This document shows positions 4,458 to 64,000 of a stretch of 64,000 bases of DNA, piece after piece. The notes beneath the pieces were generated by a model, which did no database searches, was not told where the DNA came from, and worked only from the letters and a program-made list of their open reading frames with translations. The number at the start of each line of letters is the position of its first letter. The stretch's first letter is position 1. The DNA is from Nigrospora sphaerica (lineage: Eukaryota > Ascomycota > Sordariomycetes > Amphisphaeriales > Apiosporaceae): NCBI GenBank assembly GCA_018287875.1, contig JAGVVL010000013.1, forward strand, positions 1,240,001 through 1,304,000, given 5' to 3'. The position numbers and the translations under genes are program-made.

Positions 4458-5122
4458 TGAAAGGAGCTTCTACGGTTGCATTTTACGCTGTGTAAAATAA
4501 CGCTATCTCACATTCGCCAAGAGTTGAAGGTCAGTATAGGGATAATCGCCGAGCCTTTTAGCTCGGTCCATGTTTCCGTGGTTTCGTAGATGTCCCGATC
4601 GATTTTGGTAAAGCTGGTAATGATAAGCCGATTCATCAACATCAAGAAAGCACACCTTTAAGATATCAAGATCCCAACAAGTCACAATAACGAGAAGCCA
4701 CACGCCGGCCTCAAACTTCGCGTATCAGAATCAGGCTGATTCATGATATAGCGCGCATGAAGCAGGCTGGGCGCGGCAAGGGCTTGCGGGGATTGGTTGA
4801 ATGATCCGACGTGATGGCCAGCAACCAGCCAAGGAGGGGAGGCGCGCGCTTACCGGCCGTATCAGGCTATGTTCTCTTCCAGCTGTATCTGCAGTGTGAC
4901 AGCACAATCTGATACGCTTAATGCGGAGAAAATGAAGCCACAGTAACCCCCCCTCTAATTTGGCTGCCAATCAATCTCGCGGTCAGCCGTCTCATTCAAA
5001 AGACAGATCGATTATCGAGATGCAGAGCGTTTCCCGCTTCTTCCTCTTTCTTCGTGCCCCTCACCTTTCTACCCCCTTGTTCACTTGCTCACGCCGACAC
5101 CTGTCGCGCTGAAGCTGCCGCC
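4458..5122. other. Intergenic, upstream of the DUF7587-like gene
   Basis: No gene recognised. The last 120 bp before 5123 are CT-rich (fungal core-promoter style), which fits a 5' UTR. Confidence 0.35.
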
Positions 5123-6477
5123 ATGGAAGGGCTTACCGAGCTTATGAATACAATGACAGTGAATCCACGCGAGGCTTTGCCCATGTCTTGCCCCTTTCAT
5201 CCCCCTTCCGACACCGCAATCAACCTCGAGGTTCCCCGCTTTCTGTTCAGGGTCTACTCGGCGGAAAGTGCGGGCGAAAACAACACAGAAGGATTCACCT
5301 CGAAAGATGGGTCCCCGATTTCGGGTAATCTAACAGATATATTCGCACGCGAGCCAGAACTCGTCGCCATCTCCCTCAATGAGCACCTCCGCTGGTCCAA
5401 ATCTCGGTCCTGCCCGGATCCCTTCATTTCCTGGACGACGTCCTTAGCCTTTGCGTTCCACTATGCGTTCTATAAAAGCAAAGAGGAGGGGGTTGGCTTC
5501 GGGGAAATCATGCTGTGTGTTCTTGACACCACGTGCTACCCGCCTGGAACGTTCATGCGAGATCTGGATCTCATCAAGATTTTCAAGGACCAAGTTCCCA
5601 GAGATAGGCCCATCACGGTATACGGATCCCGGACTACCTGGGAAAGAATGGGACTCGGTTACTTCCTCTCCCTCCGCACGAGACCAAAGCAACAAAGGTT
5701 TTATTACTTCGGCGAGTACCTTTCACAAGGAAGAACCGGTGTCGATCGGAGCCGCTCAAGTATCGTGAGTATGGACAAGATCGTGGGTGTTGACAAGATC
5801 GTGGGTATGGGCAAGATCGTGAACGATGATCTCTTCCGACTCGCTCCTCAGCTGTGGGATGAGCTCGAATCAATCGCAACAGGCACATTCGGCAGGAATC
5901 GTTGTGCAGACGCGGTGCTCGAATTCCGCCAGGATTTCTACAACCGGCGCACCCTGTCGACGTATCTCTCCCCAGGGAAGCGTAACGCTGCCTGCAGGAT
6001 TGCCTACAACTTCTCTGACGACTTTGCCATAGCAGTCTTGGTGAATCTGTTGTCTTTGCGGCCGTTTTGGGATGAGAGAACGATTGGCACCGCCATTTGG
6101 GAATGTGCTCCGGGTGAGTGTCCTTACTGCACCGTGGTATCACTGTCGTTTCGTCTCATACCCGTACAGATAAGGTGCGAGAGTTCTGTCTGAGACCCAC
6201 AAAGGTCATCGCGGACGATACTATTCCGGAAGTCCAGCAGTTCCAGACGAACATCCATTCCGTTTACGAGGCCTGTTATCAAGAGGAAATGAAACGAATG
6301 CGTTGGCTGTTTAAGTATATCGATTGTCACCTGGCCGCAGAGCGCACGGCACCAGGTGGGCATGCGTCCATGTTCGGTAAGAGGTTGGAAGACTGGGCCG
6401 ACAAGGTAGCCCTGGATGCTGGAGATTTGGAGAAGAAGCTGGAGGAAATTAAGCGCGTTACTAAGAGCCCATTATAA
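5123..6477 (+). CDS. DUF7587-like fungal protein
   Basis: Exons 5123-6113 and 6170-6477 are joined across a 56-nt intron (GTGAGT donor, CGTACAG acceptor, phase 1), giving 432 aa. The start at 5123 is chosen because it sits in a strong context (GCCGCCATGG); an in-frame Met at 5054 would add 23 residues. The N-terminal half has the pattern PRFLFRVYSAES, then VAISLNEHLRW, FISWTTSLAFAFHYAFY and EIMLCVLDT. I recognise this as the uncharacterised fungal DUF7587 type, whose fold has been compared with ADP-ribosyltransferase-like domains; no activity is claimed. Residues about 218-235 contain three 6-residue repeats (DKIVGV-like). The C-terminal exon is helical and charged (FKYIDCHLAAER, LEKKLEEIKR). 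No signal peptide or TM segment. The frame is intact. Confidence 0.72.
5774..5827 (+). repeat. 18-bp in-frame tandem repeat, 3 units
   Basis: Units start at 5774, 5792 and 5810. Each has GACAAGATCGTGGG or a close variant, encoding DKIVGV, DKIVGM and GKIVND. Being a multiple of three, it changes protein length without shifting frame. Confidence 0.85.
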
Positions 6478-13573: not shown

Positions 13574-16500
13574 ATGCCGCGCCAAGACGCCCCGGGCTAT
13601 GCTCAGCATGCCAAGGCACGGGACCCCTTCACGTTCCAGCCAGCCGACGACTTCTTCGCCGACCTCGACACGGGGACGGCGCCGACGCACCAGCCCGTGG
13701 CCGTCTCGTACCACGCCGCGGACCAGGCGCCGAAGGCCGGGGCCGCCGAGCCCATCAACCACAGGTACGGCCGCATCTTCCGCTTCGACGACGGCAAGTT
13801 CCTCGTCGTGCAGTTCCTGCGGCCCCGCGTCTGGCGTATTCGCTTCAACCCCCGGTTCAACAAGGCGTCCGATTACTCCGACTATAACTCGTAAGTTTTG
13901 AGCCCGGGACCAAACCTAAACCCAAACCCAAGACACCCCCCCCCCCCCCCCCCCACCGTGATCGGTACTTACGCGTCCACCTTCCTTTTTAGGCGTACTA
14001 TGTTCCAGAACACGACTTCCAAGCTGATCGCCGTCCTCGACTTTGTCGAGAAGATCGAGTGGGAGACCGAGTTCAAAAAGGTCGGCAACGCCTTTTACGT
14101 GCTGCAGTCAGTCCGTACCGACGGCGGCCAGCGGCGCATCGTAGTGCAGCTCTGGATCCAGCGCAACCCCTTCAAGATCACGGCCATCCGGTCCGTGGCC
14201 TCGACGGGCACGGAGAGGGCGAGCCCGGCCATACAACACCCGGCGCTGGACTCACCGCACAGCATCCCGGCCGCCGTGGGCTACCGCAACGTCATCGTGT
14301 GGGAGACGAAGCCGCGGGCGCTGCAGTACCAGGACGACGCCACAGTCCTCCACGTCGACAAGCCGCTGACGGCCAAGTACCTCGGCTTCGGCGAGCAGGG
14401 GGGCCGCAGCCTGTTCAAGGACAAGACGTACATGAATTACTTCAACTTTGACAACATGGCGTACTGCAACGTCTACGGCGAGGGCCCGACGTGCGACGCC
14501 GAGCCGCTCTACCACTCGGAGCCGTACTGGATCCAGGTCAACGCGCACCCGGGCTACATGACGCAGGTCGGCAGCTTCGTCGACAACTACTCGCAGGTGC
14601 TGGTGGACCTCGGCCTCGGCGCGGCGGACCGGGTGCGCGTGGCGACGCGGTTCAACAGCTTCCAGGGCCTTTTCATCGCCGGCGACGATGTGGCGCAGGT
14701 GATCCAGCTGTACACGTCGCTCATCGGGCGGCCGTGGCTGCGGCCGCGCTACGTGCTTGGCCACCACCAGGGCTGCTACGGCTACGACAGCCAGGAGCTC
14801 GTCGAGTACTACGCCGACCAGTACCGCGCCTGGGACTTCCCGCTCGACGGCCTGCACATCGACGTCGACCTGCAGCGCGACTACCGGACCTTCACCATGG
14901 ACACGCGTCCGGGCCGCTTCCCGGACCCGGCGGCCATGTTCGCCAAGCTGCGGGCGCAGGGAGTCAAATGCAGCACCAACATCACGCCCGTCATCCCGAT
15001 GCGGCGCGACCCGGGCTTCCGCTACGAGGCGCTCGAGAGCGGCTGGGCCGGGTCGGGCCGGACGGGCGACCCCCAGCAGGACAACTACTTCGTCCGCGAC
15101 GTGCGCGACGACGACGGCACCCCGGCGCGCGACGAGCGCTACGTCCAGTACGGCCGCGGCACACGTTACCTAACGGACCCCAACACGCAGCGGCCGCAGT
15201 ACGGCGACGACTACGACTTCGCGGCCAACCGCAACAGCGGGCGGCCCTTCCACGGCGGCGTCGACTACGGCGAGGGCAAGGGCAGCCCGGGCTTCTACCC
15301 GAACCTCAACCGCGCCGAGGTGCGGCGCTGGTGGGGGCGGCAGTACCAGGACCTCTTCGACGCCGGGCTCGAGTTCGTCTGGCAGGACATGACGTCGCCC
15401 TGCATGGGCCAGGAGTACGGCGACATGAAGTCGTGGCCCTTCCGCCTGCTGCTCGACGCCGACAGCTGGCCCGGCGACCCGGCGGCGCCGCCGCGCCAAA
15501 AGGCCATCGAGATCTGGTCGCTGTACAGCCTCAACCTGCACAAGGCGACGTTTGCGGGCCTGCACCGGCTGCGCGGCCGCGAGGGCCGGCGCAACTTCAT
15601 CATCGGCCGCGGCAGCTTCGCCGGTGCGCAGCGCTACGCCGGGCTCTGGACGGGCGACAACGCGTCGACATGGGACTTTTTCAGCATCTCGGTGGCGCAG
15701 GTGCTGGCGCTCGGGCTCGCCGGCGCGGCCGTGGCGGGCGCCGACGTGGGCGGCTTCGAGCCGGCGGACGAGGCCGAGCGCTTCGCCGACCCGGAGCTGC
15801 TGATCCGCTGGTATGGCGCCTACTCGCTGCTGCCGTGGCTGCGCAACCACTACGTGCGCAAGGGCAAGAAGTGGTTCCAGGAGCCCTTCGAGTACGAGCG
15901 GTACCGGCTCGCGCACGCCGTGCCGGCCGGCCAGGAGACCGTGTACCGCGCCGTGCTGCCGGCGACGCGCTACCTCGTGCGCCTCCGCTACAGCCTGCTC
16001 CAGCTGCTCTACGACGCCATGTGGGAGCACACGATCCGCGGCCTGCCCATGGCGCGCGCCATGGTCGTCTCGGACCCGCTCGACCCCTCGCTCTTCGCCT
16101 CGACCGAGTGGTACACGGGGCACCAGTACACGGTCGGCCCGGACCTGTTGGTGGCCCCCGTGATGCAGAAGCAGGGCGGCGGCAGCTCGGCAGTGAGCGT
16201 CTACCTGCCCTACCCCGACGGCTGGTTCCCCTGCAACCTGCGGCCCGACGGCGCCGCCGCCGCCGCCGACGTGCCCGGCGTCGCCCTCGCGCCCAAGGTC
16301 CGGGGCGGCTCCTACATAGACTACGACGCCCGCATCGACTGGCGCGACGAGCAGCTGCCCTACATCACCCCCATGTACATCCGCGAGGGCGCCATCATCC
16401 CGCAGATCGAGGTGCGCAACGCCGTCCCCGACCACACGCGCCCCGACATTCCCGCCTTGGCCGAGGAGCCGCCCAATCCCATCACCATCCACGTCTACCC

Positions 16501-17170
16501 GGGCAAAGACAATGTAAGTACCCGCCTACCCCGTTGTCCCCGTTTGTCCCTGTCTTCCGGGGGGTTGAGGGATGGAGAAGAAGAAGAAGAAGGGCACGCT
16601 AACGCTTGGTTCTCCCGCCAGAAATACAGCATGTACATCGACGACGGCGTGTCGCGAGCGAGCGCGCCGACAAACGCCTGGCTCGCGCGGCACGACGACG
16701 ACGGCAGCGCCGGCGCTGCGGCGCCGGCGCGCAAGCAGTGCGACGCGTACGGGGACCCCGAGGCGCGCAGCGCGTTCCGCGAGGTGCAGATCGCGCAGAA
16801 GTCGGTGCGGCGGATCCAGCCGCTGCCGGCGTACGCGCCGGCCACGGCGGCGGCGGGGGATGACTCGGCGTCGGACGAGGCCGAGGCCGAGACGGCGACG
16901 ACGTGGCAGGAGGTGCGCACGGTGACGGTGCGCACGAGCGCGCACTCGCACTTTGCCGACGACGCCGTGCGCCGCGCCGTCGGCGCCGAGTACCGCCTCG
17001 CCGTCTGGCACGCCTCCACCGTCGACCTCGCCACCGTGCGCGTCGCCGTCGATGGCGCCGGCCCCGTCGCTGTCCCGCCGCGCACCGACGACGCCGCCCG
17101 CGTCACGCTCGTGCGCCTCTCGACGCGCCAGGACGTGCGCGCCACCATTGTTATCACTACCACCATTTAA
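13574..17170 (+). CDS. Alpha-1,4-glucan lyase (GH31)
   Basis: Exons 13574-13890, 13993-16513 and 16622-17170 give 1128 aa. Intron 1 (102 nt) carries a poly-C run. Intron 2 (108 nt) is a multiple of three and free of stops, so the sequence also reads through it. The enzyme class cleaves terminal alpha-1,4-glucosyl units of starch or glycogen by elimination, giving 1,5-anhydro-D-fructose. Evidence for lyase rather than hydrolase: EFVWQDMTSP around the nucleophile Asp (about residue 571), where GH31 glucosidases have the WxDMNE type. The flanks DNYSQ, KCSTNITPVI, FYPNLN, GDMKSWPFRLL and AGLWTGDNASTWDFF (acid/base-region Asp about 661), IREGAIIPQIEVRN and MYIDDGVSRASAP follow the fungal and algal lyases throughout. 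No signal peptide, so probably intracellular. Length is close to the family's 1030-1090. GC-rich and intact. Confidence 0.88.
13936..13954 (+). repeat. Poly-C run inside an intron
   Basis: Nineteen consecutive C residues within intron 1 (13891-13992) of the glucan lyase gene. The donor GTAAGT and acceptor TTTTTAG lie outside the run. Confidence 0.9.
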
Positions 17171-26400: not shown

Positions 26401-26439
26401 AGAGCCCCCAGTCGTTAAATAGCGTGAGCCTATATTAAG

Positions 26440-29400
26440 TCGCTTACAGGCTCCCAATCCCGGCGCCTTAACTTTATTGCCCTTACCAATATCTGCCCGT
26501 TCCATCCATAGCCTGTCTATCCGCGAAGAGGAAGATATACATGGAAAGCTTATAGTTTTACCTACCACCTTGATTTCCGATGACTGCACTATACCGACTT
26601 ACGCCCTAACCAACTCCGGAGCCGCCGTTAAAGCATTCATCGACCGCAGCTAGGCTGAAGCCCACGAGCTGCCAATACGACCTTTACGGAGACCGTTCGA
26701 GATCGAGGTGATCGACAGTCGCCCGAGCAAGAGTAGGAAGGTTACCCACTTCGTCGAATGTTCGATGCGGATAAACGATCATCATAAGAAACGACTACGT
26801 TTCTTCGTAACCTAGCTAGCTTACTTCCCCGTTATCCTTGGAATCCCGTGGCTTAAGATGCACGACCCCCATGTGGGTTTCGTAAGTCACACGCTCACAT
26901 TCGATAGCGAATTCTGTCGCCAGAACTGCAACATATTAGAGAGACCTATAAAGGTCGTCGCCATGTATAACGTCCCTGCACGAGCCCGTCCGGAGAACCT
27001 GCCGAACCGTCCGGAGGCCTTATCCCAATAGGACATTGCCCCGATCACCACTTGCGCCTGCTCAGCGTACCTAAAGAAAGGATACGCCACGTTTCCTGTC
27101 ACCGTCGAAGAGATCGACGAGCACTTATCCTAGAAGGCTAATCCGCCCCTACCTAAGCAACTCCCGCTAGAACTGCGAGAATTCGAAGATGTGTTCTCAC
27201 CGAAAGAGGCAGAGAAACTACCACCGCACCGAGATCACGATCACGAGATCAGACTAATGGAAGGGAAAATGCCCCCCTTCGGACCCCTATACGCTATGTC
27301 CCGCGAAGAACTGGCCGCACTAAAAGAGTGGCTACAAGAGAATCTCCGGAAAGGGTTTGTCCGACCCAGCTCGTCCCCGGCCGCGTCCCCTGTCCTGTTT
27401 GTTAAGAAGCCTGGAGGAGGGCTCCGTTTCTGTGTCGACTACCGCGCCCTAAACAACATCACTATTAAAGACCGTTACCCGCTGCCCCTAATTAAGGAGA
27501 CCTTAAATAACCTAAAGGGAATAAAGTATTTCTCTAAGGTCGACATTATTACGGCATTTAACGAGATCAGAGTTAAAAAGGGATAAGAATACCTGACTGT
27601 ATTCCGCACCCATTTTAGCTTATTCGAGTCGTTAGTTATACCTTTCGGACTGACTGGAGCCCCTGCTACATTCCAAAGGTTTATTAACGATACCTTACGA
27701 CACCACCTGGACATCTGCTGCACTGCGTACCTAGACGACATCCTGATTTATAGCCGGACCCGCGAGGAACACGTCGAACACCTACGAAGGGTGCTTCAAG
27801 CATTAAGAAAAGCCGGCCTATTCGCGAAAATATCGAAGTGCGAATTCTTTAAAACTGAGACCACGTTCCTAGGGATGATTGTTGGCTGCGATGGCCTACG
27901 TATGGACCCCGCCAAGATTGAGACAGTTAAGAACTGGGCTACCCTGTCCTACTTAACCGATATATAAGCGTTTATCGGCTTTAGGAACTTCTACTGTAGG
28001 TTTATCCGAGACTTTTCGAAGATTGTTGCCCTGCTAGTTAACCTTATAAGGAAAAGGGTTGAGTTCGCTTAGATAGAAGAATGTGAGAATATATTCGTTA
28101 CATTAAAGAACACGTTTATATCGGCCCCGATCCTAGCTCCCTTCGACTAGGAGAAAGAAGTGATTTTAAAGACCGATGCCTCGGACTACGTCTCTACTGG
28201 TGTGCTGTCACAGTACAGAGACGACGGAATTTTACACCCGGTTGCCTTCTTCTTAAAAAAGCACTCTTCGATAGAGTGTAACTACGAAATCTACGATAAG
28301 GAACTTCTAGCCATTATTCGTTGCTTCGAAGAATGGCGCCCTGAATTAGAAGGCGCGCTATCGCCGATTAGGGTTATCACCGACCACCGGAACCTGGAAT
28401 ACTTCATAACGATAAAGTTGCTAAACCGCCGATAAGCAAGATAGTCTGAATTCTTATCTCGCTTTAACTTTAAGATTATATACCGACCTAGGAAGCAAGG
28501 AATAAAACCCGACGCCCTGACTAGGAGGTTAGAGGACCTACCTAAAGAGGGGGATGAACGACTGCTACACCAGAGTAGAGTCGTCCTAAAGAAAGAGAAC
28601 TTCGAACCGTAAAGGAAATCAGTCCGCTTCAAGGAAAGCCCGACCCGAGCTAACGCTGTAACTAGATCGCAATCCGCTCCTGGCCGTCCCCTAGAACTAA
28701 GCGCCGTCGACCCAGACCCCCGGCCTACTATTACACTATCTCTACGATAAGAACGCCACGCCCTATTACTGCCGCCAGCTATTTAGAACCTCATAACCCG
28801 AGGATACGAGTCGGACAAGACCGTTCACTCTATCTTAAAGGCACTGCGCACTGGAAAACCCCGCCACCCCTTAATCTCCCTTGCCAAGTGCGAGGAACGA
28901 GCTGGTATGCTATACTACCGCGACCGCCTTTATATCCCTGACCTGCCCGAACTACGCGCTGAACTGACTCGTTTATACTATAACACTGCCGTGGCTGGAC
29001 ACCTAAAAAGAGCCTGCATATATAAGACCCTATCCCGAGACTACTACTGGCTACGGATGTACGCCTTTGTGGAGCAATAGACTAACAACTATTATACCTA
29101 TCGCCGGACCACTTCTTCCCGCGAAGCTAAGCAAGGGGTGCTCCGCCTGCTGCCTGTACCCGAACGAGCATGGCAAGACATTTCGATGGACTTCATCGTA
29201 CACTTACCGAAGAGTGATAGCTACGACGCTATCTTAGTTATAGTCTGCCGCTTAACAAAGATGAAACACTTCATCGCCTGCCGAGACACCTGTGGCGCCG
29301 ACGAGGTCGCGTGCCTATACCTAAATAACGTCTGGAAACTACACGGTTTACCGAGAACCGTAATCTCCGACCGAGGTCCCCAATTCGTGGGACGCTTCTA

Positions 29401-30274
29401 GGAACACCTAACCCACCGACTAGGTATTCAGAGCCTGCTATCGACTGCCTTTCACCCCGAAACCGATAGCCAGACTGAACGAGCGAACTCGTTCTTAAAA
29501 TAGTACCTCCGCGCCTAAGTGTCGTACTTACAAGACGATTAGAGCCGCTGGCTCCCCTTAGCTGAATTCGCGTTAAATAATGCCTTAAATAAGAGCATTA
29601 AGACTACACCGTTCTTCGCGAACTACGGGTTCTATCCGAGGATCGGGTTTAAACCACTGGACCCCGACTGCACCCCCGCCGCCCTAGATACCGAGCGCGT
29701 CGCCTAGAAGATTCAGGAAGTCCACGAGATATTGAAGTCTGAGATCTATTTAGCGCAAGCCTGCCATAAGGAATATGCTAACCGTAAGAGGCGCCCCGCC
29801 CGCCGATACCAAGTAGGCCAGAAAGTCTAGCTTAATGCCCGAAACATACAGACGAAACGCCCTTAAAAGAAACTCGATTGGAAGCAACTTAGACCCTTCA
29901 CCATTACGAAGGTTGTGAGCCTGTACGCCTACCAGTTAAACCTACCCCCGTTTATAAGAAATCACCCGGTATTCCATGTTAGCCTACTCCGTCCTGATCC
30001 TGACGATCCTGCCCCCGGTCAAGTGCAACCACCGCCACCGCCTATAGAGGTCGATAGCATCGAAGAGTTCGAAATCGAAGACATCCTGGATTCCCGTCTA
30101 GACAACCGAGGCGGAGGCCGAGGTTCCCGCTTAAAATACACCGTGAAGTAGGCTGGATACGACCAACCAACCGAGGAGCCTGCAGAATACGTCGCTAACG
30201 CCAGCGAGGTAGTGGCAAACTTCCACCGAAGATACCCAGAGAAACCGAGACCTATTAGCCTACGGAAGGCTTAG
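26440..30274 (+). pseudogene. Pol of Gypsy 1 (PR-RT-RH-IN-chromodomain), RIP-degenerated
   Basis: One continuous frame with many in-frame stops and no frameshift; the 5' limit is approximate. The protease motif is NSGAAVKAFID at 26612, with catalytic Asp replaced by Asn. [22 protein letters not shown], and [11 protein letters not shown] at 27728 (active-site Asp pair kept). RNase [16 protein letters not shown]. Integrase: [16 protein letters not shown] and [13 protein letters not shown]-terminal chromodomain: [13 protein letters not shown] then LKYTVK, with the following Trp changed to a stop. The family's job is reverse transcription and integration; this copy cannot do it. Confidence 0.9.
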
Positions 30275-30328
30275 CCGTCCGCCCTTCAGAACCGCGTCGA
30301 TGGAACTCCGCCTTGAGGAGGGGAGTAC

Positions 30329-30617
30329 TATCACGGGGTGGACCGTGATAGACTGTACCGGCACAGGGCAGCCTCTGAGATATCCTAAACTGGCTACGGA
30401 TTAGTCGTCCCGTGATGGAGTTCTGTTAAGACCGCTCGGTACGGACCTCCGTTGGGGATTTAGATAAGAAGTCTGCGACCGAGGAGACTTCAGTTGTAGC
30501 TCTTCAAGCTACGTCCTGTCCACCAAGCCTGACCTGTACCGACAGAATAGGAACCTGGACCTGTAGCATAGAACCTGAATCGACTCCTTTATCCGCCTGC
30601 CTGCCCGCTCCTTGACA
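30329..30617 (+). repeat. 3' LTR of Gypsy 1 (289 bp)
   Basis: Same length as the 5' LTR, differing mainly by G-to-A and C-to-T changes, including the first dinucleotide TG changed to TA. Confidence 0.95.
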
Positions 30618-41309: not shown

Positions 41310-41995
41310 TATTATTATTATTATTATTGTTCTTACACCTAGCGACCTATCTAGGCCATGAGGACCCCCCGCGCATCTTGGCCTAGGAAAACCGTTCCGG
41401 GCTGACGTCCGGCCGGGTGAAAAACCTAGGTTCCGCTGCGTCGCACCGCTCCTATCTGCACTTTGACCTGCCATACCGAGATCGGGCTCAGCGCGCCCGC
41501 TTCCTAGCTGATGAGTTGATTCGCCAGCTGGAACATGTCCAGCCTTCCGGAGCGGAGTAGCCATCTCGCGATAATTCCTGCTTTTCCTGGGGTGTCGAGC
41601 ATCCTGTCCGTGTCTATCGGTCCTCCTAAAGCTTGGACGAGATGCTCTCGTCTTTCTCTTTCCCGTGGGCAGAAAACGAGGATATGCCAGACGGTCTCCC
41701 TGCCCTGACCGCAGACGCACCAGGGGCTGTCGAAGCCCGGGACCCTACGCTTAAAAAGGAAGTCTCGCAGCCTAATCTTACCAGTCCTCGCTTGGACGAG
41801 GATGGAGCTCTCGGCCTTATGGAGTCCCTTATGGAGCTTGAGGACGTGCTTATCTGGCGGCATCTTAGTTGCTGCCGGGGTCCGTGCTGTTCGATTTTGC
41901 TGCGCTTATTGCTATCTATAAAGCCAGTCTCTCTCCTTAGCCTTATATGCTGAGTCTCCAGTTAGCTATTTGTCTAGCCACCTCTTAGTCCGATG
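41310..41995 (-). mobile_element. 5'-truncated Tad-like LINE fragment
   Basis: On the minus strand, the 41504-41863 frame ends a LINE ORF2. It reads VLKLHKGLHKAESSILVQ, TGKIRLRDFLF and the terminal zinc-knuckle-like CVCGQGRETVWHILVFCP. The element ends in a (TAA)n-type tail at about 41310-41330, as in fungal Tad-clade elements. Upstream coding sequence (to about 41990) is recognisable but contains stops. The 5' end abuts the broken N-terminal part of the NACHT-ankyrin gene. Target-site duplication not identified. Confidence 0.75.
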
Positions 41996-42708
41996 GTATC
42001 AGAGTACCGCTCCTTGTACCCTGATGCAGCGAGACTGCAAAGTTCTCTGGCTGGTTTTTATGCATCAATCGTGCGTTGCTGCCAGCATCTGGTCGAGGTG
42101 ATGAACTTCAGTGGTAAGTGCATTTAAGTTACTCATACCTTGGTTGTTATGATATCTTACACAAAGTAGGATACAAGGGGCTTGCTAAGAAACTCTCCGT
42201 ATCGTTCAACCAAGAGTTCAAGTCGCATCTCGATAACATTTGAAGCTGCCGCAAGCGCGTCAAGGAGGAAGTCGACCTTGCTACAAGACAAGCAAGTCTC
42301 CAGCATCAGAAGCTTCAGGCAGCCGAACGGCGGGAAGCAAGTCGAAACAGAGCCGACATGACACGTTTTTTCTCACATACAAGGGAAAGAATGAAAAGAG
42401 TAGAAGACAGGCAGGTACACCACTCCCGCCAGGAATCGGGTAAGTGCAACCGTACTCTTCATCGTATCCTAGCTCATAGAAAGTAGCGAGAGCAATACAG
42501 CAGCTACTGGATTCTCTATCTGCCCATGACTTCATGCGAGCATATAAACAGGGCAATGAGAAACGTTACGGAACCACGACTCACTGGGTATTCGAGACGC
42601 CGCAGTTTAAGCAATGGCTTGGTGGTAAAAGTCCTACTCTTTGGTGCTCGGGGAAAAGTAAGGCATCACGACCCCGCCCAATCGTCGGAGAGTCTCTAAT
42701 TAATAATG

Positions 42709-42903
42709 TGTCGCAATATGAGGCTATTCACGTGGCTTAGCCTCTCCTGCCAGGTCACGTGGCTCCTCTTCACATGCCAGGATTCACATGGTGACAGGGG
42801 TCCTGAGCTACTATATGTACTACTGCACCTACAGACAGATTTCCTTTGTTTCCTTCTAATGGATAACTTGAACCTCGCTTTCCACGACCTCTGCAGTGCG
42901 ACA
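42709..42903. repeat. Divergent solo LTR in an NLR intron, 195 bp
   Basis: Begins TGTCGCAATATGAGGC and ends CTGCAGTGCGACA, flanked by TAATG at 42704-42708 and 42904-42908. It is related to the 190-bp family but clearly diverged. It lies in the 255-nt intron 42658-42912; without LTR and one duplication the intron is 55 nt. Confidence 0.9.
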
Positions 42904-42978
42904 TAATGGCAGTCGGGTCTGGCAAGACTATCTTCACGTGTGTCGCAACGACTATGCAAATCATTTAAATATGTACTA

Positions 42979-43168
42979 TGTCGCGAGACGAGCCTATTGT
43001 CACTAACAAGCCTACCAGGTCACGTGACTTTATATAAGCTCAAGAGCCTAGCCTGTCAGGCAGGCTACGGAACTACTATATCTACGTCTGGATCCTCAGA
43101 TAGTTTTCCTTTGTTTTTCCTAATAGAACAACTAGAATCTCGTTCCTCACGTCCCCTGAAGTGCGACA
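42979..43168. repeat. Solo LTR in the next NLR intron, 190 bp
   Basis: Same family as 21542-21731, flanked by TACTA at 42974-42978 and 43169-43173. It lies in the intron 42938-43191, which is 59 nt without the insertion and has a TACTAAC branch point that the duplication partly repeats. Confidence 0.93.
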
Positions 43169-44866
43169 TACTAACACGAGATATCGTATAGTTCTAGCGC
43201 CATTCAGCACATATTGAACACTCAAGGCTCGCTTAGATCCCCGGTGTACTTTTTTTTCGCTGAATCAGACGACAGCAACTCACTGGATGCACATTTTATT
43301 CTCAGGTCCATCTTGCGTCAGAGACTCACGGGAAGCGAGATCTCGGAGACAATCGAGGGTCAAGTCCAGACCATAGTTTCTTCGTCGCCTTCTGCGGACA
43401 TACTGGATCTCCTACGCCAATTATTTTCACCGCCTCGTATTTACCACATCCTGATCGACGGACTGGACGAATGCGTTGCAACAGAACGAAAGGACCTACT
43501 CAAGACGCTGTCAGCGCTTGTTGCAACTAATGGCAACATAAGTCTCTTTCTTTCAGGACGCGCCAGCATCAGCAAAGAAGTCAGGAAGCATTTCTCAGTC
43601 TTTGAGCACCTCAGCTTGGACTGCGAAGCCACAAACGACGATATTGCGATGTACGTCGAAGGTTTTCTCAACGAGCAGATTGAAGATGGGAACCTCCAAG
43701 TTGGAGATCCGGCACTTATCACCGACATCAAGATGGCGCTTGTGATAGGCGCCCAAGGAATGTAGGTTCGTCTATCCAGGGGTTTACGTACTGTTACTAA
43801 ACCAGCGATCTGGCAGGTGTCTCTGGGCATACTTTCAGCTCCAAGACATATGTTCGCAACATTGCGACGAGGACAATCGGAACACTTTACAAAATTTGCC
43901 GAAAGGGCTTGCTGAGACGTTTCAGCGAATCATTCATCGAATTGAGAAAGGTAGCTACGGCAAAGCAACTCGTAAAGTCTTGCCGTGGGTTGCAGCATCC
44001 AAGCGACCACTGTCCCTCGGAGAGCTACGTGAAGTTATAGCTATCGAAATCGGCCAGGAGTACACTATAGCAGCTCGTCTCTATAACGACATGGAGAATA
44101 TCGTCTCCTGGTGTGAGAACCTGGTCCAGGTCGACGTCGAGAGTCAGCTTGTCCAGTTTACCCATTCGGCGGTAAGGACCTTTATGTTCGAAAAGTCCAG
44201 AGTCGACGATCATTCAGGCTACCACCTCGTACTCGACGAAGTCGACCACCAGCTTGGTGAGCTTTGCGTCACCTACCTCAACTTCAACGACTTCAAGACG
44301 GCCATGGCGATAAGACCCAAGCCTCTTGTGGTGGACCCATCAAGGGCTACAGACGCGGTTTTCCCACCGGGCTCAACCCGCGCCACGATATTCTCATTGA
44401 TCGCCAGACGCGAAGGGCGGAAGCACGATATGCGATCGGCTGTGTAAGGTTTGCTTCAGGATTCCGAGGCCTCAAGCACTGCTCTGGGAGCTGGGCATCC
44501 TTTTCTGGAGTATGCATCAACCTACTGGATATGGCACACCACACAGTTTGACGCAATTTCATCCAAGACATGGAATCAGTGGAAAGCCATGGTAACAAAT
44601 GGCCACGAACTTGCGAAGACACCGTGGGACGGAGTTTTCAGTGATATTGACAGCTTCGCAACGGACCCGAGGGGCAAGAGCCTGGATGATGTCAGCATAT
44701 GGAATTGGGCGCAACGAAATCAACATCACGCACTGATCAGCCTTTTGTTCACCCAAATTCCACTACGCCAAAGGGGTGTAGTGCTGGAAGACGCCAAGAA
44801 AAGAGATGACATTCAGCTTATCGATATGTTGGCATATGGCGCCGTGCTGCCCCTGGAGATCGTTGA

Positions 44867-46800
44867 TAAGCTCGGCCCCCCCTCTGCGCACCAGCCCCTC
44901 TGCGCGCCACCAGTTTCAGGGGTGCTTCACGATGCCGCCCCGACCGTCACCCGCGATTATTTAGGCTCACAGAAGGTCTCTGGAGATGAGACCTAGATCT
45001 TCAGACTCGCGAGCTTCCGCCTTATCCCCTGATATTTCTCCTATGGACCCAGACCAGCTGGAAGCTGCGTTGGCCGCTATCGCTAGTGGCCAATCCATCC
45101 GCGCCACCGCGAAGCAGTTCCATGTCTCTAGAGACTATCTTCACCGCCGCATTAAAGGTTCGAACACTAAAAAAGAGGCCGACGGCGAGAGGCAAGCCTT
45201 AACCCCTATCTAGGAGCAATTACTTATAGACTGGGTGTTGTTGTAGGCCAGGTTAGGCTGGGCCCCTCCGCATTCTTGTTTTCGCTTATTTATTAACCGC
45301 ATCAATTACCAGTCTGGAGGCCACAATCGCCTTGGTAAACACTGGCACTTACGCTTCTTTCGCCGCCATCTGGAGGTGAGGTCTATACGATCCACTGGAA
45401 TCGATTTTCTCTGTGTTAATGGTGCTTCTCGCGTTAATATCGTGGAGTTCTTCGACCGCCTAGATTATCCAGAGCTCGCCAAGGTGCTCTTAGAGGATTC
45501 CTATAACGTGGATAAGATTGGCAGCATGATTAGGCTTGGGGACAACCCTTTAGTCATTAGCCCAGCCGCTGTGAGAAAGATCTACACTATAGACCCTGGT
45601 AACCGCGAGTGGGTGACGATTCTAGAGTGTGTCAGCGCTGACGACCGTATCCTGCCCCCCTTAATTATTTTTAAGGGCGTCGACATTCAACAACAATAGT
45701 TCCAGGGCCAATTAGACGACGAAGACTTCGAAGACTGGCGTTTCTGCTGCTCTCCAACCGGCTAGACCAATAATCCGATTGCCCTGCGGTAGCTAAAGGA
45801 GATCTTTCTACTAGAAACAAGGCCTGCCCACGGTGGATGGAGACACCTCATTCTAGACGGCCACGGAAGCCACTGTGATAAGCAGTTTATATTAGCGTGC
45901 CTCGAGGAGAAGGTGTGGCTCAATTTCCTCCCAGCGCACACCTCACAGGTGCTCCAGCCCTTGGACCTGGGCCCCTTCTCGGTGTTAAAGAGGGCATACC
46001 GGACTAGGCTTCGTGAGGCCTGCTTCTCCAGCCTCACTATAAATCCGAAGAAGCCAGAGTTCCTAGAGGCCTGGAATAAGGCTAAGAAGGAGGCCTTCAC
46101 GCCTTAAAACATCGCCGCCGGCTAGCTAGCCACCGGAATCTTCCCTAGGAACCGTTCGAAGGCCTTAAACAGCAGGTTAGCGCGTTAACGTAATCAGGAC
46201 CTGCTATAGGGCCCCAGAACACTAGAACCAGAGCCCAGAATAACCGATACGCTAGCTGCAATATCTACAGTGACGTTCTCCACGCTTAGGAGTTCGTGCC
46301 AGGTAGCCGAAATCGCCAGGAACCTACGTAATCTAAAGCCAGCTTACAGCAGGCCAACTTTCCGATTTTTTATACGGAAGCTCAGTAAGGCCCTTAACGA
46401 TAGTTGCGCTCAGATCGCCAGCCTCACGCACGAACGAGACCAATTAGCGGCTGCTCTGGAGCGCCAGAGGCCTCAGAAACGTTGTAAAGTGAAGCCCTCA
46501 GTGTAGGACCGCTTTATGGCACTTCTAGACGTCAGGAGAGTGAAAAGGGAGGTAGGGTTACTAGAAGATAAGGGCTCGACAGATAAGGACATAGAGAGCT
46601 GGGTTGACCTGCGGGATTCAGACGAAGAGGAGGTCAGTAAGGCAGAAGACTGCATTGTGATCTCTTGAAACCAAACTATATAGTTATAGCAGCCCTGGTG
46701 GCCGAGATATTTGTCATTCTGTGTCAAGGGGTCATCTTGAGGCGCCCCTGAAATTGGTGGCGTGCAGAGGGGCTGGTGCGCAGAGGGGGGGCCGAGCTTA
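44867..46800 (+). mobile_element. pogo/Fot1-like transposon, copy B (1930 bp)
   Basis: Element 44869-46798 with TA duplications at 44867-44868 and 46799-46800. TIRs of about 55 bp start AGCTCGGCC. It is inserted in an exon of the NLR gene. Same length as copy A, inverted orientation relative to it. Confidence 0.95.
44986..46668 (+). pseudogene. pogo-like transposase, RIP-degenerated (copy B)
   Basis: One frame of 561 codons with about ten in-frame stops, nearly all TAG, and no frameshift. The N-terminal psq helix-turn-helix (IRATAKQFHVSRDYLHRRI) is followed by VNIVEFFDRLDYPEL and by the DDE_1 core LILDGHGSHCDKQF, then LPAHTSQVLQPLDLGPFS. The C-terminus has a coiled-coil-like LTHERDQLAAALERQRPQ and an acidic tail to TGA at 46666. 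Encodes a DNA cut-and-paste enzyme when intact; not functional here. Confidence 0.92.
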
Positions 46801-48005
46801 CAATTTTGCTGGACGCGGCACGTCGTGGTGATTCGGCTACGGTCAAGGCACTGCTCGCGGCGGAGACTTATCCCGATTTTGGACGGACAAAGAACGCCAG
46901 AAGAAGGGATGCGCTCAGAGTCGCAGCAGAAGTCGGATACGTAAAAGTGGTTGACTGCTTCCTTCAAGCGCACACCAACGTGAACGAGCTGCTATGGGTG
47001 GAGTACACAGAAGTGCTGGTGGCCGCCGCATCTTTTGGGCATCTGGAAGTGGTCAATAGGCTGATTGCAGCAAACGCCCCTGTGAATGCACAACCTGCAT
47101 ACTCTGGCCGAACAGCATTACAGGGGGCCGCAGGAGCTGGACACCTGGATATCGTGGATAGACTGCTTACAGCAAATGCCGACGTGAATGCAGCGCCTGC
47201 ATTAGATTCCGGGCGGACGGCGTTGCAAGCCGCTGCACAATTTGGCCATCTAGCAGTGGTTAACCGACTCCTCGCGGCGGGCGCCGAAACGAACGCAGAG
47301 GGCGCGTCGCTTGGAGGAGTCACAGCGCTTCAAGCCGCCATGAATAACGGCCATCTGGGCGTGGTTCAAAGACTAATTAAAGCAGGAGCCACAATGAACG
47401 GACTACTCTACGTCGCGGCATGTCACGGCAAGCTCGCAATAGTTAATCGTTTACTCGCGGCTGGCGCCAACGTTAACGAAGAACATCTTACATCGAATGG
47501 AGAGTCCACACCGCTTCAAGCGGCAGCACGCAACCGCCATTACGATGTGCTCAACATGTTGATTCGAGCTGGGGCCGAAGTGAACGGACATCCTACCATG
47601 GATGGAAGGTTCACACTGCTTCAATACGTGGCACATTGCGGTGATTTCAACCTGCTAGACCGCCTGCTCGAAGCTGGCGCCGAAGTGAACGAAGATGCCC
47701 ATCCGAACAAGGGGCGCACAGCGCTTCAAGCAGTGGCAGAGAAGAGCCATATACGAATTGTCGATCGCCTGCTTGCAGCTGGCGCCGACATGAACGCGGA
47801 GGGCGCGTCGTCCGACGGGCTCACAGCGCTTGCAGCAGCCGTCAATGGCCGCCATGAGAGAATTGTCGAGAAACTAATTCGAGTGGGGGCCGATGTGAAC
47901 GCCACGTCAAACCGTCCGTCTGGGAAAAAAACGGCGCTGGAACTCGCCCGTGGAAATCGGTCGATGAAAGATGCTTTGATGCGTGCTGGCGCTTTACAGT
48001 TCTAA

Positions 48006-59819: not shown

Positions 59820-60108
59820 TGTCAAGGAGCGGGCAGGCAGGCGGATAACGGAGTCGATTCAGGTTCTATGCTACAGGTCCAGGTTCCTATTCTGTCGGTA
59901 CAGGTCAGGCTTGGTGGACAGGACGTAGCTTGAAGAGCTACAACTGAAGTCTCCTCGGTCGCAGACTTCTTATCTAAATCCCCAACGGAGGTCCGTACCG
60001 AGCGGTCTTAACAGAACTCCATCACGGGACGACTAATCCGTAGCCAGTTTAGGATGTCTCAGAGGCTGCCCTATGCCGGTACGGTCTGTCACAGTCCACC
60101 CCGTGACA
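59820..60108 (-). repeat. 3' LTR of Gypsy 2 (289 bp)
   Basis: Inverse of the Gypsy 1 LTR. On the plus strand it begins TGTCAAGGAGCGGGCAGG and ends CCGTGACA. Confidence 0.95.
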
Positions 60109-60162
60109 GTACTCCCCTCCTTAAGGCGGAGTTCCATCGACGCGGTTCTGAAGGGCGGACGG

Positions 60163-63100
60163 CTAAGCCTTCCGTAGGCTAATAGGTCTCGGTTTCTCTG
60201 GGTATCTTCGGTGGAAGTTTGCCACTACCTCGCTAGCGTTAGCGACGTATTCCGCAGGCTCCTCGGTTGGTTGGTCGTATCCAGCCCACTTCACGGTGTA
60301 TTTTAAGCGGGAACCTCGGCCTCCGCCTCGGTTGTCTAGACGGGAATCCAGGATGTCTTCGACTTCGAACTCTTCGACGCCGTCGACCTCTATAGGCGGC
60401 GGCGGTGGTTGCACTTAACCGGGGGCAGGATCGTTAGGATCAGGACGGAGTAGGCTAACATGGAATACCGGGTGATTTCTCATAGACGGGGGTAGGTTTA
60501 ACTGGTAGGCGTACAGGCTTACAACCTTCGTAATAGTGAAGGGTCCAAGTTGCTTCCAATCGAGTTTCTTTTAAGGGCGTTTCGTCCGTATATTTCGGGC
60601 ATCAAGCCAGACTTTCTGGCCTACTTGGTATCGGCGGGCGGGGCGCCTCTTACGGTTGGCATATTCCTCATGGCGGGCTTACGCTAAACAGATCTCAGAC
60701 TTCAACATCTCGTGGACTTCCTGAATCTTCTAGGCGACGCGCTCGGCATCTAGGGCGGCGGGGGTGCAGTCGGGGTCCAGTGGTTCAAACCCGATCCTCG
60801 GATAGAACCCGTAGTTCGCGAAGAACAGTGTAGTCTTAATGCTCTCATTTAGGGCATTATTTAACGCGAATTCAACTAAGGGGAGCCAGCGGCTCCAATC
60901 GTCTTGTAAGTACGACACTTGGGCGCGGAGGTACTGTTCTAAGAACGAGTTCGCTCGTTCAGTCTAGCCATCGGTTTCGGGGTGAAAGGCAGTCGATAGC
61001 AGGCTCTGAATACCTAGTCGGTGGGTTAGGTATTCCCAGAAGCGTCCCACGAATTGGGGACCTCGGTCGGAGATTACGGTTCTCGGTAAACCGTGCAGTT
61101 TCCAGACGTTATTTAGGTATAGGCGCGCGACCTCGTCGGCGCCACAGGTGTCTCGGCAGGCGATGAAGTGTTTCATCTTTGTTAAGCGGCAGACCACGAC
61201 TAAGATAGCGTCGTAGCCGTCACTCTTCGGTAAGTGTACGACGAAGTCCATCGAAATGTCTTGCCATGCTCGTTCGGGTACGGGCAGCGGGCGGAGCACC
61301 CCTTGCTTAGCTTCGCGGGAAGAAGTGGTCCGGCGGCAGGTGTGACAGTTGTTAGTCCATTGCTCCACGAAGGCGTACATCCGCGGCTAGTAGTAGTCTC
61401 GGGACAGGGTCTCGTATATGCGGGCTCTTTTTAGGTGTCCAGCCACGGCAGTGTCATGGTATAAACGAGTCAGTTCAGCGCGTAGTTCGGGCAGGTCAGG
61501 GATATAAAGGCGGTCGCGGTAGTATAGCATACCAGCTCGTTCCTCGCACTCGGCAAGGGAGATTAAGGGGTAGCGGGGTTTTCCGGTGCGCAGTGCCTTT
61601 AAGATGGAGTGAACGGTCTCGTCCGACTCGTATCCTCGGGTCATGAGGTTCTGAATAGCTGGCGGCAGTAATGGGGCGTGGCGTTCTTATCGTAGAGATG
61701 GTGTAATAGCAGGCCGGGGGTCTAGGTCGACGGCGCTTAGTTCTAGGGGACGGCCAGGAGCGGATTACGATCTAGTTACGGCGTTGGCTCGGGTCGGGCT
61801 TTCCTCGAAGCGGACTGATTTCCTTTACGGTTCGAAGTTCTCTTTCTTTAGGACGACTCTACTTTGATGTAGCAGTCGTTCATCCCCCTCTTTAGGTAGG
61901 TCCTCTGACCTCCTAGTCAGGGCGTCGGGTTTTATTCCTTGCTTCCCAGGTCGGTATATGATCTTAAAGTTAAAGCGAGATAAGAATTCAGACCATCTTG
62001 CTTGTCGGCGGTTTAATAACTTTGTCGTTGTGAAGTATTCCAGGTTCCGGTGGTCGGTGATGACCCTAATCGGCGACAGCGCGCCTTCTAGTTTAGGGCG
62101 CCATTCTTCGAAGCAACGAATGATGGCTAGAAGTTCCTTATCGTAGATCTCGTAGTTACACTCTGTCGAAGAGTGCTTTTTTAAGAAGAAGGCAACCGGG
62201 CGTAAAATTCCGTCGTCTCCGTACTATGACAGCACACCAGCAGAGACGTAGTCCGAGGCATCGGTCTCTAAAATCACTTCTTTCTCCCAGTCGAAGGGAG
62301 CTAAGATCGGGGCCGATATGAACGCGTTCTTTAACGCAACGAATGCATTCTCACATTCTTCCGTCCAAGCGAACTCAACCCCTTTCTTTATGAGGTTGAC
62401 TAGCGGGGCAACAATCTTCGAAAAGTCTCGGATAAACCTGCGGTAGAAGTTCCCAAAGCCGATAAACGCTTGTACGTCGGTTAAGCAGGATAGGGTGGCC
62501 CAGTTCTTAACTGTCTTAATCTTAGCGGGGTCTATACGTAAGCTATCGCAGCTAACAATCATCCCTAGGAACGTGGTCTCAGTTTTAAAGAATTCGCACT
62601 TCGACATTTTCGCGAATAGGCCGGCTTCTCTTAATACTTGAAGCACCCTTCATAGGTGTTCGACGTGTTCCTCGCGGGTCCGGCTATAAATCAGGATGTT
62701 ATCTAGGTACGCAGTGCAGCAAATGTCCAGGTGGTGTCGTAAGGTATTGTTAATAAACCTCTGGAATATGGCAGGGGCTTTAGTCAGTCCGAAAGGCATA
62801 ACTAACGACTCGAATAAGCCAAAACGGGTGCGGAATGCGGTCAGGTATTCTTGTCCCTCTTTAACTCTGATCTCGTTAAATGCCGCAATGATGTCGACCT
62901 TAGAGAAATACTTCATTCCCTTTAGGTTATTTAAGGTCTCCTTAACTAGGGGCAGCGGGTAACGGTCCTTAATAGTGATGTTATTTAGGGCGCGGTAGTC
63001 GACATAGAAACGGAGCCCTCCTCCAGGCTTCTTAACGAACAGGACAGGGGACGCGGCCGGGGACGAGCTGGGTCGGACAAACCCTTTCCGGAGATTCTCT

Positions 63101-64000
63101 TGTAGCCACTCTTTTAGTGCGGCCAGTTCTTCGCGGGACATAGCGTATAGGGGTCCGAAGGGGGGCATTTTCCCTTCCATTAGTCTGATCTCGTGATCGT
63201 GATCTCGGTGCGGTGGTAGTTTCTCTGCCTCTTTCGGCGAGAACATATCTTCGAATTCTCGCAGTTCTAGCGGGAGTTGCTCAGGCAGGGGCGGATTAGC
63301 CTTCTGGGATAAGTGCTCGTCGATCTCTTCGATGGTGACGGGAAACGCGGCGTATCCTTTCCTTAGGTACGCTGAGCAGGCGCGAGCAGTGATCGGGGCA
63401 ACGTCCCATCGGGATAAGGCCTCCGGACGGTTCGGCAGGTTCTCCGGACGGGCTCGTGCAGGGACGTCATACATGGCGACGACCTTTATAGGTCTCTCTG
63501 GCATGTTGCAGTTCTGGCGACAGAATTCGCTGTTAAACGTGAGCGTGTGACTCGCGAAACCCACACGGGGGTCGTGTATTTTAAGCCACGGGATTCCAAG
63601 GACAACGGGGAAGTAAGCTAGCTGGGTTACGAAGAAACGTAGTCGTTTCTTATGATGATCGTTTATCCGCATCGAACATTCGACAAAGTGGGTAACCTTC
63701 CCACTCTCGCTCGGGCGACCGTCGATCACCTCGATCTCGAACAGTCTCCGTAAAGGTCGCATCGGCAGCTCGTGGGCTTCAGCCCAGCTGCGGTCGATGA
63801 ATGCTTTAGCGGCGGCTCCGGAGTCGGTTAGGGCGTAAGTCGGTATAGTGCAGTCATCGGAAATTAAGGTGGTAGGTAAAACCATAAGCTTTCCACGTAT
63901 ATCTTCCTCTTCGCGGATAGACAGGCTATAGACGGAACAGGCAGATATCAGTAAGGGCAACGGAGTTAAGGCGCCGGGATTGGGAGCCTGTAAGCGACTT
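60163..64000 (-). pseudogene. Pol of Gypsy 2, partial, with scattered stops
   Basis: One frame on the minus strand with a handful of stops and no frameshift. The 436-codon open part (63960-62650) holds protease [15 protein letters not shown] (catalytic Asp kept) and [22 protein letters not shown]. The RT active site is changed to YLDN (62698-62700). Then RNase [15 protein letters not shown], the integrase zinc-binding part HDTAVAGHLKRARIYETLS, the core [16 protein letters not shown], and a chromodomain [13 protein letters not shown] with intact YTVKWAGYD, ending at 60163. Confidence 0.9.

What the first reader, a model, noticed from the sequence alone, without database searches (positions are those of the whole stretch)
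41997..48005. NACHT-ankyrin gene split by pogo copy B at a TA, with frame preserved on both sides
The NACHT half ends at codons for IVD and the ankyrin half resumes at ILLDAARRGD. Removing the 1930-bp element plus one TA restores one reading frame at the exact junction. Element plus duplication is 1932 bp, a multiple of three, so only stops inside the element break the frame. The insertion falls between the signalling part and the sensor part of the NLR. The Met that appears to start a separate 409-aa ankyrin protein comes from the transposon end.
Basis: partly seen in the sequence, partly recalled or inferred. Interest (0 to 1): 0.9.

Follow-up and report, generated by a model that had tools for sequence, protein, structure and literature searches.

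The report
Transposon-split, multiply broken fungal immune-receptor relic
In a fungal genome, a gene for an immune-receptor-like protein has been cut in two by a jumping gene and carries several other lesions as well, so it looks like a dead gene of a familiar kind rather than a new split receptor.

Summary
The core observation holds. A 1930-bp pogo/Fot1-type element (44869-46798) with a TA duplication lies inside a NACHT-ankyrin gene. Keeping one TA gives ...LEIVD-T-ILLDAARRGD..., which aligns without a gap at the junction to six homologues, each a single protein. In 53 of 61 homologues found, the NACHT side and the ankyrin side match the same protein.

The single-lesion reading does not hold. 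About 141 N-terminal residues are missing and a 5'-truncated LINE piece abuts the break. There is an in-frame TGA (42241) and an in-frame TAA (44445). Two solo LTRs with 5-bp duplications lie in two inferred short introns on either side of a 25-nt exon carrying the P-loop. The supposed start Met of the ankyrin half is a GTG; the first in-frame ATG is at 47340. The insertion falls just inside the ankyrin array. Frame preservation is a 1-in-3 event with no consequence, because the element adds 37 stops in that frame.

Best reading: a decayed fungal NLR pseudogene in transposon-rich DNA. Transposon inactivation of a fungal NLR-type gene is already described (nwd2, PMC3321046). The order of the lesions, and whether an empty-site allele exists, remain open. 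Interest is low.

The parts
41310..41987 (-). 3' end of a 5'-truncated LINE (non-LTR retrotransposon) with an (AAT)n tail; abuts the first recognisable NLR sequence
   Evidence: matches over positions 2-21 to 683 of the query at 96-97% in most of the 42 matches listed (40 of 405 candidates scored); two other copies run on past 41987 into the same further sequence; zf-RVT, E 0.007, below Pfam's cut-off.
41988..42113 (+). NLR exon remnant, part of the DUF7708 region; homology begins at about residue 142 of P0001
   Evidence: exon limits inferred from GT..AG and homology
42170..42439 (+). NLR exon with in-frame TGA at 42241-42243 (relatives have Arg, Gln or Glu there)
42487..42657 (+). NLR exon ending ...LWCSGK, just before the P-loop
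42709..42903 (.). Solo LTR 1 (195 bp), duplication TAATG on both sides, inside the inferred intron 42658-42912
   Evidence: ends and duplication; 2 mismatches of 185 to two other copies; 40 matches listed
42913..42937 (+). 25-nt inferred exon carrying the P-loop GSGKT
   Evidence: homologues P0002-P0004 read SGKIGSGKT
42979..43168 (.). Solo LTR 2 (190 bp), duplication TACTA on both sides, inside the inferred intron 42938-43191; from a family with paired LTRs about 7.3 kb apart and an RVT_2 reverse transcriptase
   Evidence: ends; 1 mismatch of 190 to each of 7 copies; paired copies; RVT_2 in one such element, L043
43192..43761 (+). NLR exon, NPHP3_N/NACHT part
   Evidence: NPHP3_N E 2.1e-12; NACHT E 0.026 (below cut-off)
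43817..44868 (+). NLR exon: winged-helix part, linker, start of the ankyrin region; in-frame TAA at 44445-44447
   Evidence: GPIID_WHD E 7.9e-9
44867..44868 (.). Left copy of the TA duplication
44869..46798 (+). Pogo/Fot1-type element, copy B, with a broken transposase frame
   Evidence: DDE_1 and HTH_psq matches; longest open stretch 150 aa; 37 stops in the NLR frame
46799..46800 (.). Right copy of the TA duplication
46801..48005 (+). Ankyrin half, open to the stop at 48003; no in-frame ATG before 47340
   Evidence: (Ank_2 E 3.5e-57)

Best explanation
This is a decayed NLR pseudogene of the fungal DUF7708-NACHT-winged-helix-ankyrin type. Shown: a pogo-type DNA element inserted at a TA inside a once continuous coding region; the gene is also 5'-truncated next to a LINE piece, has two in-frame stops, and holds two solo LTRs in inferred introns. 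Inferred: no working receptor can be made. A product from the first in-frame ATG (41993) would end after 64 codons, a product reading through the NACHT part would end 42 codons into the element at 44994, and the ankyrin half has no start of its own at its beginning. Also inferred: decay was recent, because the ankyrin half has no stop or frameshift and both LTRs are 99% like other copies.
For: Empty site and ungapped junction. 53 of 61 homologues carry both sides in one protein. Stops at 42241 and 44445. No credible N-terminal match in the window. LINE piece ends exactly where NLR homology starts. LTR duplications TAATG and TACTA. Seven of eight pogo copies examined have TA at both ends with intact ends. 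The nearest paralogue, on the same contig 127 kb away, is broken too.
Against: The coding halves look well kept: no frameshift was needed and the ankyrin half is open for 401 codons, so a very recent event in an otherwise valued gene cannot be ruled out. The exon-intron model is inferred from splice motifs and homology, not from RNA. Base errors in the assembly could explain one isolated stop. The missing N-terminus could lie outside the 64-kb window; the genome search with P0002 scored only 36 of 259 candidates.
Confidence: 0.9

Rival explanations
1. One reading: an otherwise intact NLR gene with the pogo insertion as its only lesion, and a separate 409-aa ankyrin protein started by a Met from the element.
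For: Frame is in register on both sides and the ankyrin half is open.
Against: In-frame TGA and TAA, missing N-terminus, GTG instead of ATG at 46776.
Confidence: 0.03
2. Order question, nested in the best reading: pogo was the killing hit in a working gene and the other exonic lesions followed. The alternative is that pogo landed in a gene already dead.
For: Both solo LTRs lie in inferred introns that make up about 7% of the gene, as if exon hits had still been selected against when they landed. Both are 98.9-99.5% like other copies, so the gene may have lived until lately.
Against: Pogo copy B cannot be dated: it differs by 5.6-10.8% from five full-length relatives and its private changes are mostly C>T, 21 of 43 at CpA, which a RIP-like process could make at once. 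Two LTRs is a small number, and AT-rich introns may simply be favoured targets.
Confidence: 0.4
3. The split is functional: NACHT and ankyrin parts are now made as two proteins that work together, or the element is removed from the message as a long intron.
For: Open ankyrin half. Nothing here measures expression.
Against: No ATG before 47340 in the ankyrin frame; in-frame stops in the NACHT side; P-loop exon between two LTR-loaded introns; N-terminus gone. A 1.9-kb intron would be far longer than the five inferred introns of this gene (47-59 nt without the LTRs).
Confidence: 0.03
4. RIP spreading from the repeats made the stops in the NLR gene.
For: The element's own changes look RIP-like, and its composite RIP index is +0.11.
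Against: Composite index is -0.60 for 43190-44868 and -0.75 for the ankyrin half: no RIP signature in the gene itself.
Confidence: 0.1

Closest known systems
nwd2 (NACHT-WD40 STAND gene) of Podospora anserina het-s strains, inactivated by the REPA element (PMC3321046, passages seen)
   Same: A fungal NLR-type gene knocked out by a transposon.
   Different: There the insertion is polymorphic between incompatibility types and has an allelic working copy. Here the element is pogo-type, the repeats are ankyrin, there are several further lesions, and no allele is known.
NACHT-ankyrin proteins with an N-terminal DUF7708 of Apiospora, Microdochium, Pyricularia, Pestalotiopsis and others (P0001-P0061)
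   Same: Same order of parts (DUF7708, NPHP3_N/NACHT, GPIID_WHD, ankyrin); 58% identity of the 345-residue query with the best hit.
   Different: Those are predicted whole proteins; this copy is broken.
Fot1/pogo family of Tc1/mariner elements (PMC7325037, passages seen)
   Same: TA target duplication, inverted ends, DDE_1 catalytic domain and a helix-turn-helix part.
   Different: Copy B itself has no intact transposase.
[quoted passage not shown]
   Same: Fungal NLR relics; nwdp-1 is without stop mutations in some strains, the same question that is open here.
   Different: WD40 repeats; no transposon split is mentioned in the passages seen.

Membership tests
Fungal NLR, NACHT-ankyrin class | NACHT-type NTPase part with P-loop | tested here: met
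   NPHP3_N E 2.1e-12, NACHT E 0.026 below its cut-off; P-loop GSGKT in the inferred 25-nt exon
Fungal NLR, NACHT-ankyrin class | C-terminal ankyrin repeats in the same protein | tested here: met
   Ank_2 E 3.5e-57; same protein in 53 of 61 homologues; ungapped junction in 6 of 6 homologues aligned
Fungal NLR, NACHT-ankyrin class | N-terminal effector or signalling part | tested here: not met
   The first ~141 residues of the homologues are not found in the window; only the end of the DUF7708 region is left. The locus is therefore filed as a relic of the class, not as a working member.
Fungal NLR, NACHT-ankyrin class | Function in self/non-self recognition or cell death | not testable with these tools
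   No expression or phenotype data
Pogo/Fot1 (Tc1/mariner) | Insertion at TA with TA duplication | tested here: met
   TA at both ends in 7 of 8 copies examined, the eighth (L007) being cut at one end
Pogo/Fot1 (Tc1/mariner) | DDE_1 transposase with helix-turn-helix part | tested here: met
   Copy B: DDE_1 E 0.0011 (below cut-off), HTH_psq E 2.8e-6. Relative L006: DDE_1 E 4.1e-31
Pogo/Fot1 (Tc1/mariner) | Placement in a transposase phylogeny | not tested
   No tree with named pogo subfamilies was built
Processed or expressed split gene | Start codon for the ankyrin half | tested here: not met
   46776 is GTG; first in-frame ATG 47340

The most novel reading that the evidence does not exclude
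The gene was a working NLR until very recently. The two solo LTRs survived only because they landed in two ~55-nt introns beside the P-loop micro-exon, and pogo then struck an exon and ended it. If so, sister strains still segregate intact and broken alleles, and this is an allorecognition or immune locus caught in the act of loss, as with nwd2 in Podospora.
Probability: 0.2. Interest if true: 0.4.

Novelty: new member of a known kind. Interest (0 to 1): 0.17.

Why it matters
It is a clean local example of how fungal NLR genes are lost in transposon-rich DNA, with base-exact footprints of four elements in one gene. It also warns annotators: an ORF caller would report a 409-aa ankyrin protein here that has no real start. 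If sister strains keep an intact allele, the locus would be a candidate polymorphic recognition gene; nothing here shows that.

Tried and rejected
Empty site elsewhere in the same genome: the ankyrin half matched only itself (1 match), so there is no paralogous empty site to compare. The nearest NACHT paralogue (47%, same contig; L022) has several stops, and no ankyrin match within the 9 kb fetched (tblastn E <= 1).

Finding a closer relative through the ankyrin half: 33 hits at E <= 1e-60, the best 44%, generic ankyrin proteins, and only the 7995 candidates with most shared words were scored. It did not name the species and gave no near-identical protein.

RIP leakage as cause of the stops: not supported by the indices. 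Indices are also above zero in GC-rich ordinary ORFs (for example 13895-17170, +0.24; TauD-like region, +0.11), so they are weak evidence either way.

Pogo targeting of NLR genes: 7 flank ORFs of five other copies (L002-L006) scanned with Pfam gave RVT_1, DUF7587 and DDE_1 and no NLR domain. Small sample, 1.5 kb per side; the ORFs of L007 and L008 listed were not scanned.

A first pairwise table of the pogo copies mixed orientations (55% differences); it was redone with L002 and L005 turned and is not used. LTR1 limits were first set 10 bases short and corrected. Exon limits were off by one base for two exons and corrected.

Dating of the pogo insertion was given up because its changes are RIP-like. 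No structure was predicted, because domain families were already clear.

Full report
WHAT WAS CHECKED. The window lies in a 51.6-Mb assembly of 33 contigs. Introns, HET and NACHT families and the relatives found point to a filamentous ascomycete; the best hits are Apiospora, Microdochium, Pyricularia and Pestalotiopsis. This is an inference, not an identification.

THE INSERTION. The element spans 44869-46798 (1930 bp), begins AGCTCGGCC and ends GGCCGAGCT, and is flanked by TA. A second copy in the window (2526-4455, minus strand) is 91% identical. In the genome, 65 matches were listed (40 of 143 candidates scored); six full-length copies, this one included, are 89-100% identical to it. Seven of the eight copies read at their ends have TA on both sides; the eighth, L007, is cut at one end. 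A relative, L006, has a 430-aa frame with DDE_1 (E 4.1e-31); copy B itself gives DDE_1 at E 0.0011, below cut-off, and HTH_psq at E 2.8e-6. The longest open stretch in copy B is 150 aa. It is a pogo/Fot1-type element whose own transposase is broken.

THE HOST GENE. The pieces to the left of the element match NPHP3_N (E 2.1e-12) and GPIID_WHD (E 7.9e-9); the piece to the right matches Ank_2 (E 3.5e-57). A search with the winged-helix and linker part found 61 proteins. In 53 of them the ankyrin half matches the same protein as the NACHT or winged-helix part; in eight it does not (P0015, P0022, P0027, P0034, P0036, P0057, P0059, P0060). The search admitted only proteins of about 780-2480 aa, so separately encoded short halves could not appear; the 53 show that the fused form is common, not that it is universal. 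Aligned with six of these proteins, the peptide across the empty site has no gap at the junction; the nearest gap, one residue, lies nine residues before it. In P0001, Ank_2 starts at residue 820, so the insertion is just inside the ankyrin array.

OTHER LESIONS. (a) Homology begins at about residue 142 of P0001, at 41984-41988. Directly to the left lies a LINE piece, 41310-41987, minus strand, 96-97% like most of the 42 matches listed; two other copies run on past that point in the same way, so this copy is 5'-truncated. Five homologues searched with tblastn gave no credible match to their first ~141 residues in the window. No flanking duplication is evident by eye. An insertion with deletion, or a later rearrangement, would explain this. 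(b) TGA at 42241 and TAA at 44445, both in frame. (c) Solo LTR 1, 42709-42903, with TAATG on both sides, and solo LTR 2, 42979-43168, with TACTA on both sides. They differ by 2 of 185 (two copies) and 1 of 190 (seven copies) from other copies. Paired LTR-2 copies about 7.3 kb apart are listed; one such stretch holds RVT_2, gag_pre-integrs below cut-off, and SH3_retrovirus domains. RVT_2 as a mark of Copia-type elements is recalled.

THE INTRONS. GT..AG introns at 42114-42169, 42440-42486, 42658-42912, 42938-43191 and 43762-43816 join the homologous pieces in frame. The third and fourth contain the two solo LTRs; without LTR and duplication they would be 55 and 59 nt. Between them lies a 25-nt exon with the P-loop GSGKT. 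Introns without LTRs sum to 272 nt of 3691 (7.4%), so two of two LTRs in introns by chance has odds of about 0.5%. This was computed after the fact and ignores target preference. The paralogue L022 reads through this stretch without introns, so the introns are not shared by all relatives. Splicing is inferred.

WHAT IT CAN MAKE. From the first in-frame ATG (41993) a product would end after 64 codons at the TGA. A product reading through the NACHT part would run 42 codons into the element and stop at 44994. The ankyrin frame has no ATG before 47340, and 46776 is GTG. No working receptor is expected. This is inference without RNA data.

AGE AND ORDER. Copy B has 49 private changes against at least four of five agreeing relatives; 43 are C>T (both strands), 21 of them at CpA (21 of 174 sites, against 4 of 294 at CpC, 9 of 220 at CpG, 9 of 299 at CpT). 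This is a RIP-like pattern, so the element cannot be dated by divergence. The composite RIP index is +0.11 in copy B, +0.40 in copy A, -0.60 and -0.75 in the two gene halves, so RIP did not visibly spread into the gene. In the 2814 bases of coding sequence tested, 3.5% of random single changes make a stop, so one or two stops fit a low level of decay. Whether pogo or another lesion killed the gene is undecided.

COMPARISON WITH WHAT IS KNOWN. Passages of PMC3321046 state that nwd2, a NACHT-WD40 gene, is inactivated by a transposon in all het-s isolates analysed so far. Passages of PMC12222747 describe NWD pseudogenes and note that NLR genes are associated with transposable elements. Passages of PMC9815663 describe ankyrin repeats as one of the usual fungal NLR repeat types. 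Passages of PMC10197012 describe birth-and-death evolution and a pseudogenization route to allorecognition. Passages of PMC7325037 describe TA duplication, the helix-turn-helix part and the Fot1 subfamily. None of these papers was read whole. Five literature searches showed no paper about a pogo element in a NACHT-ankyrin gene in their listings; that is no proof of absence.

VERDICT. Ordinary in kind.

Noticed in passing
42658-43191: Two solo LTRs, each with its own 5-bp duplication, lie in two adjacent inferred introns around a 25-nt P-loop exon; the duplication TACTA overlaps a branch-site-like TACTAAC.
   Followed up: partly
L022 (G000:C5:1406500-1415500): A second NACHT-type relative (47% in the winged-helix part), on the same contig about 127 kb away, has several in-frame stops, and no ankyrin match in the 9 kb fetched: another NLR relic.
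   Followed up: partly
26437-30617 and 59820-64000: A 4.2-kb inverted pair, 94.7% identical, near the window's end; the second copy has a composite RIP index of +0.58.
   Followed up: no
2526-4455: Pogo copy A has more private changes than copy B (115, of which 112 C>T on either strand) and lies about 470 bp before an ORF with DUF7587 (4922-6190), not inside it.
   Followed up: partly
57295-58374: An ORF on the minus strand with a HET (heterokaryon incompatibility) domain, E 1.5e-8.
   Followed up: no
P0001 (Apiospora marii): The annotated relative lacks exactly the stretch around the P-loop (SGKSSHGCPV in place of SGKIGSGKT...GCPV), which looks like a missed small exon in that annotation.
   Followed up: no
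G000:C16:2772310-2780112: Very long open ankyrin frames (2593 and 2858 aa's list), possibly a highly repetitive NLR-like gene.
   Followed up: no
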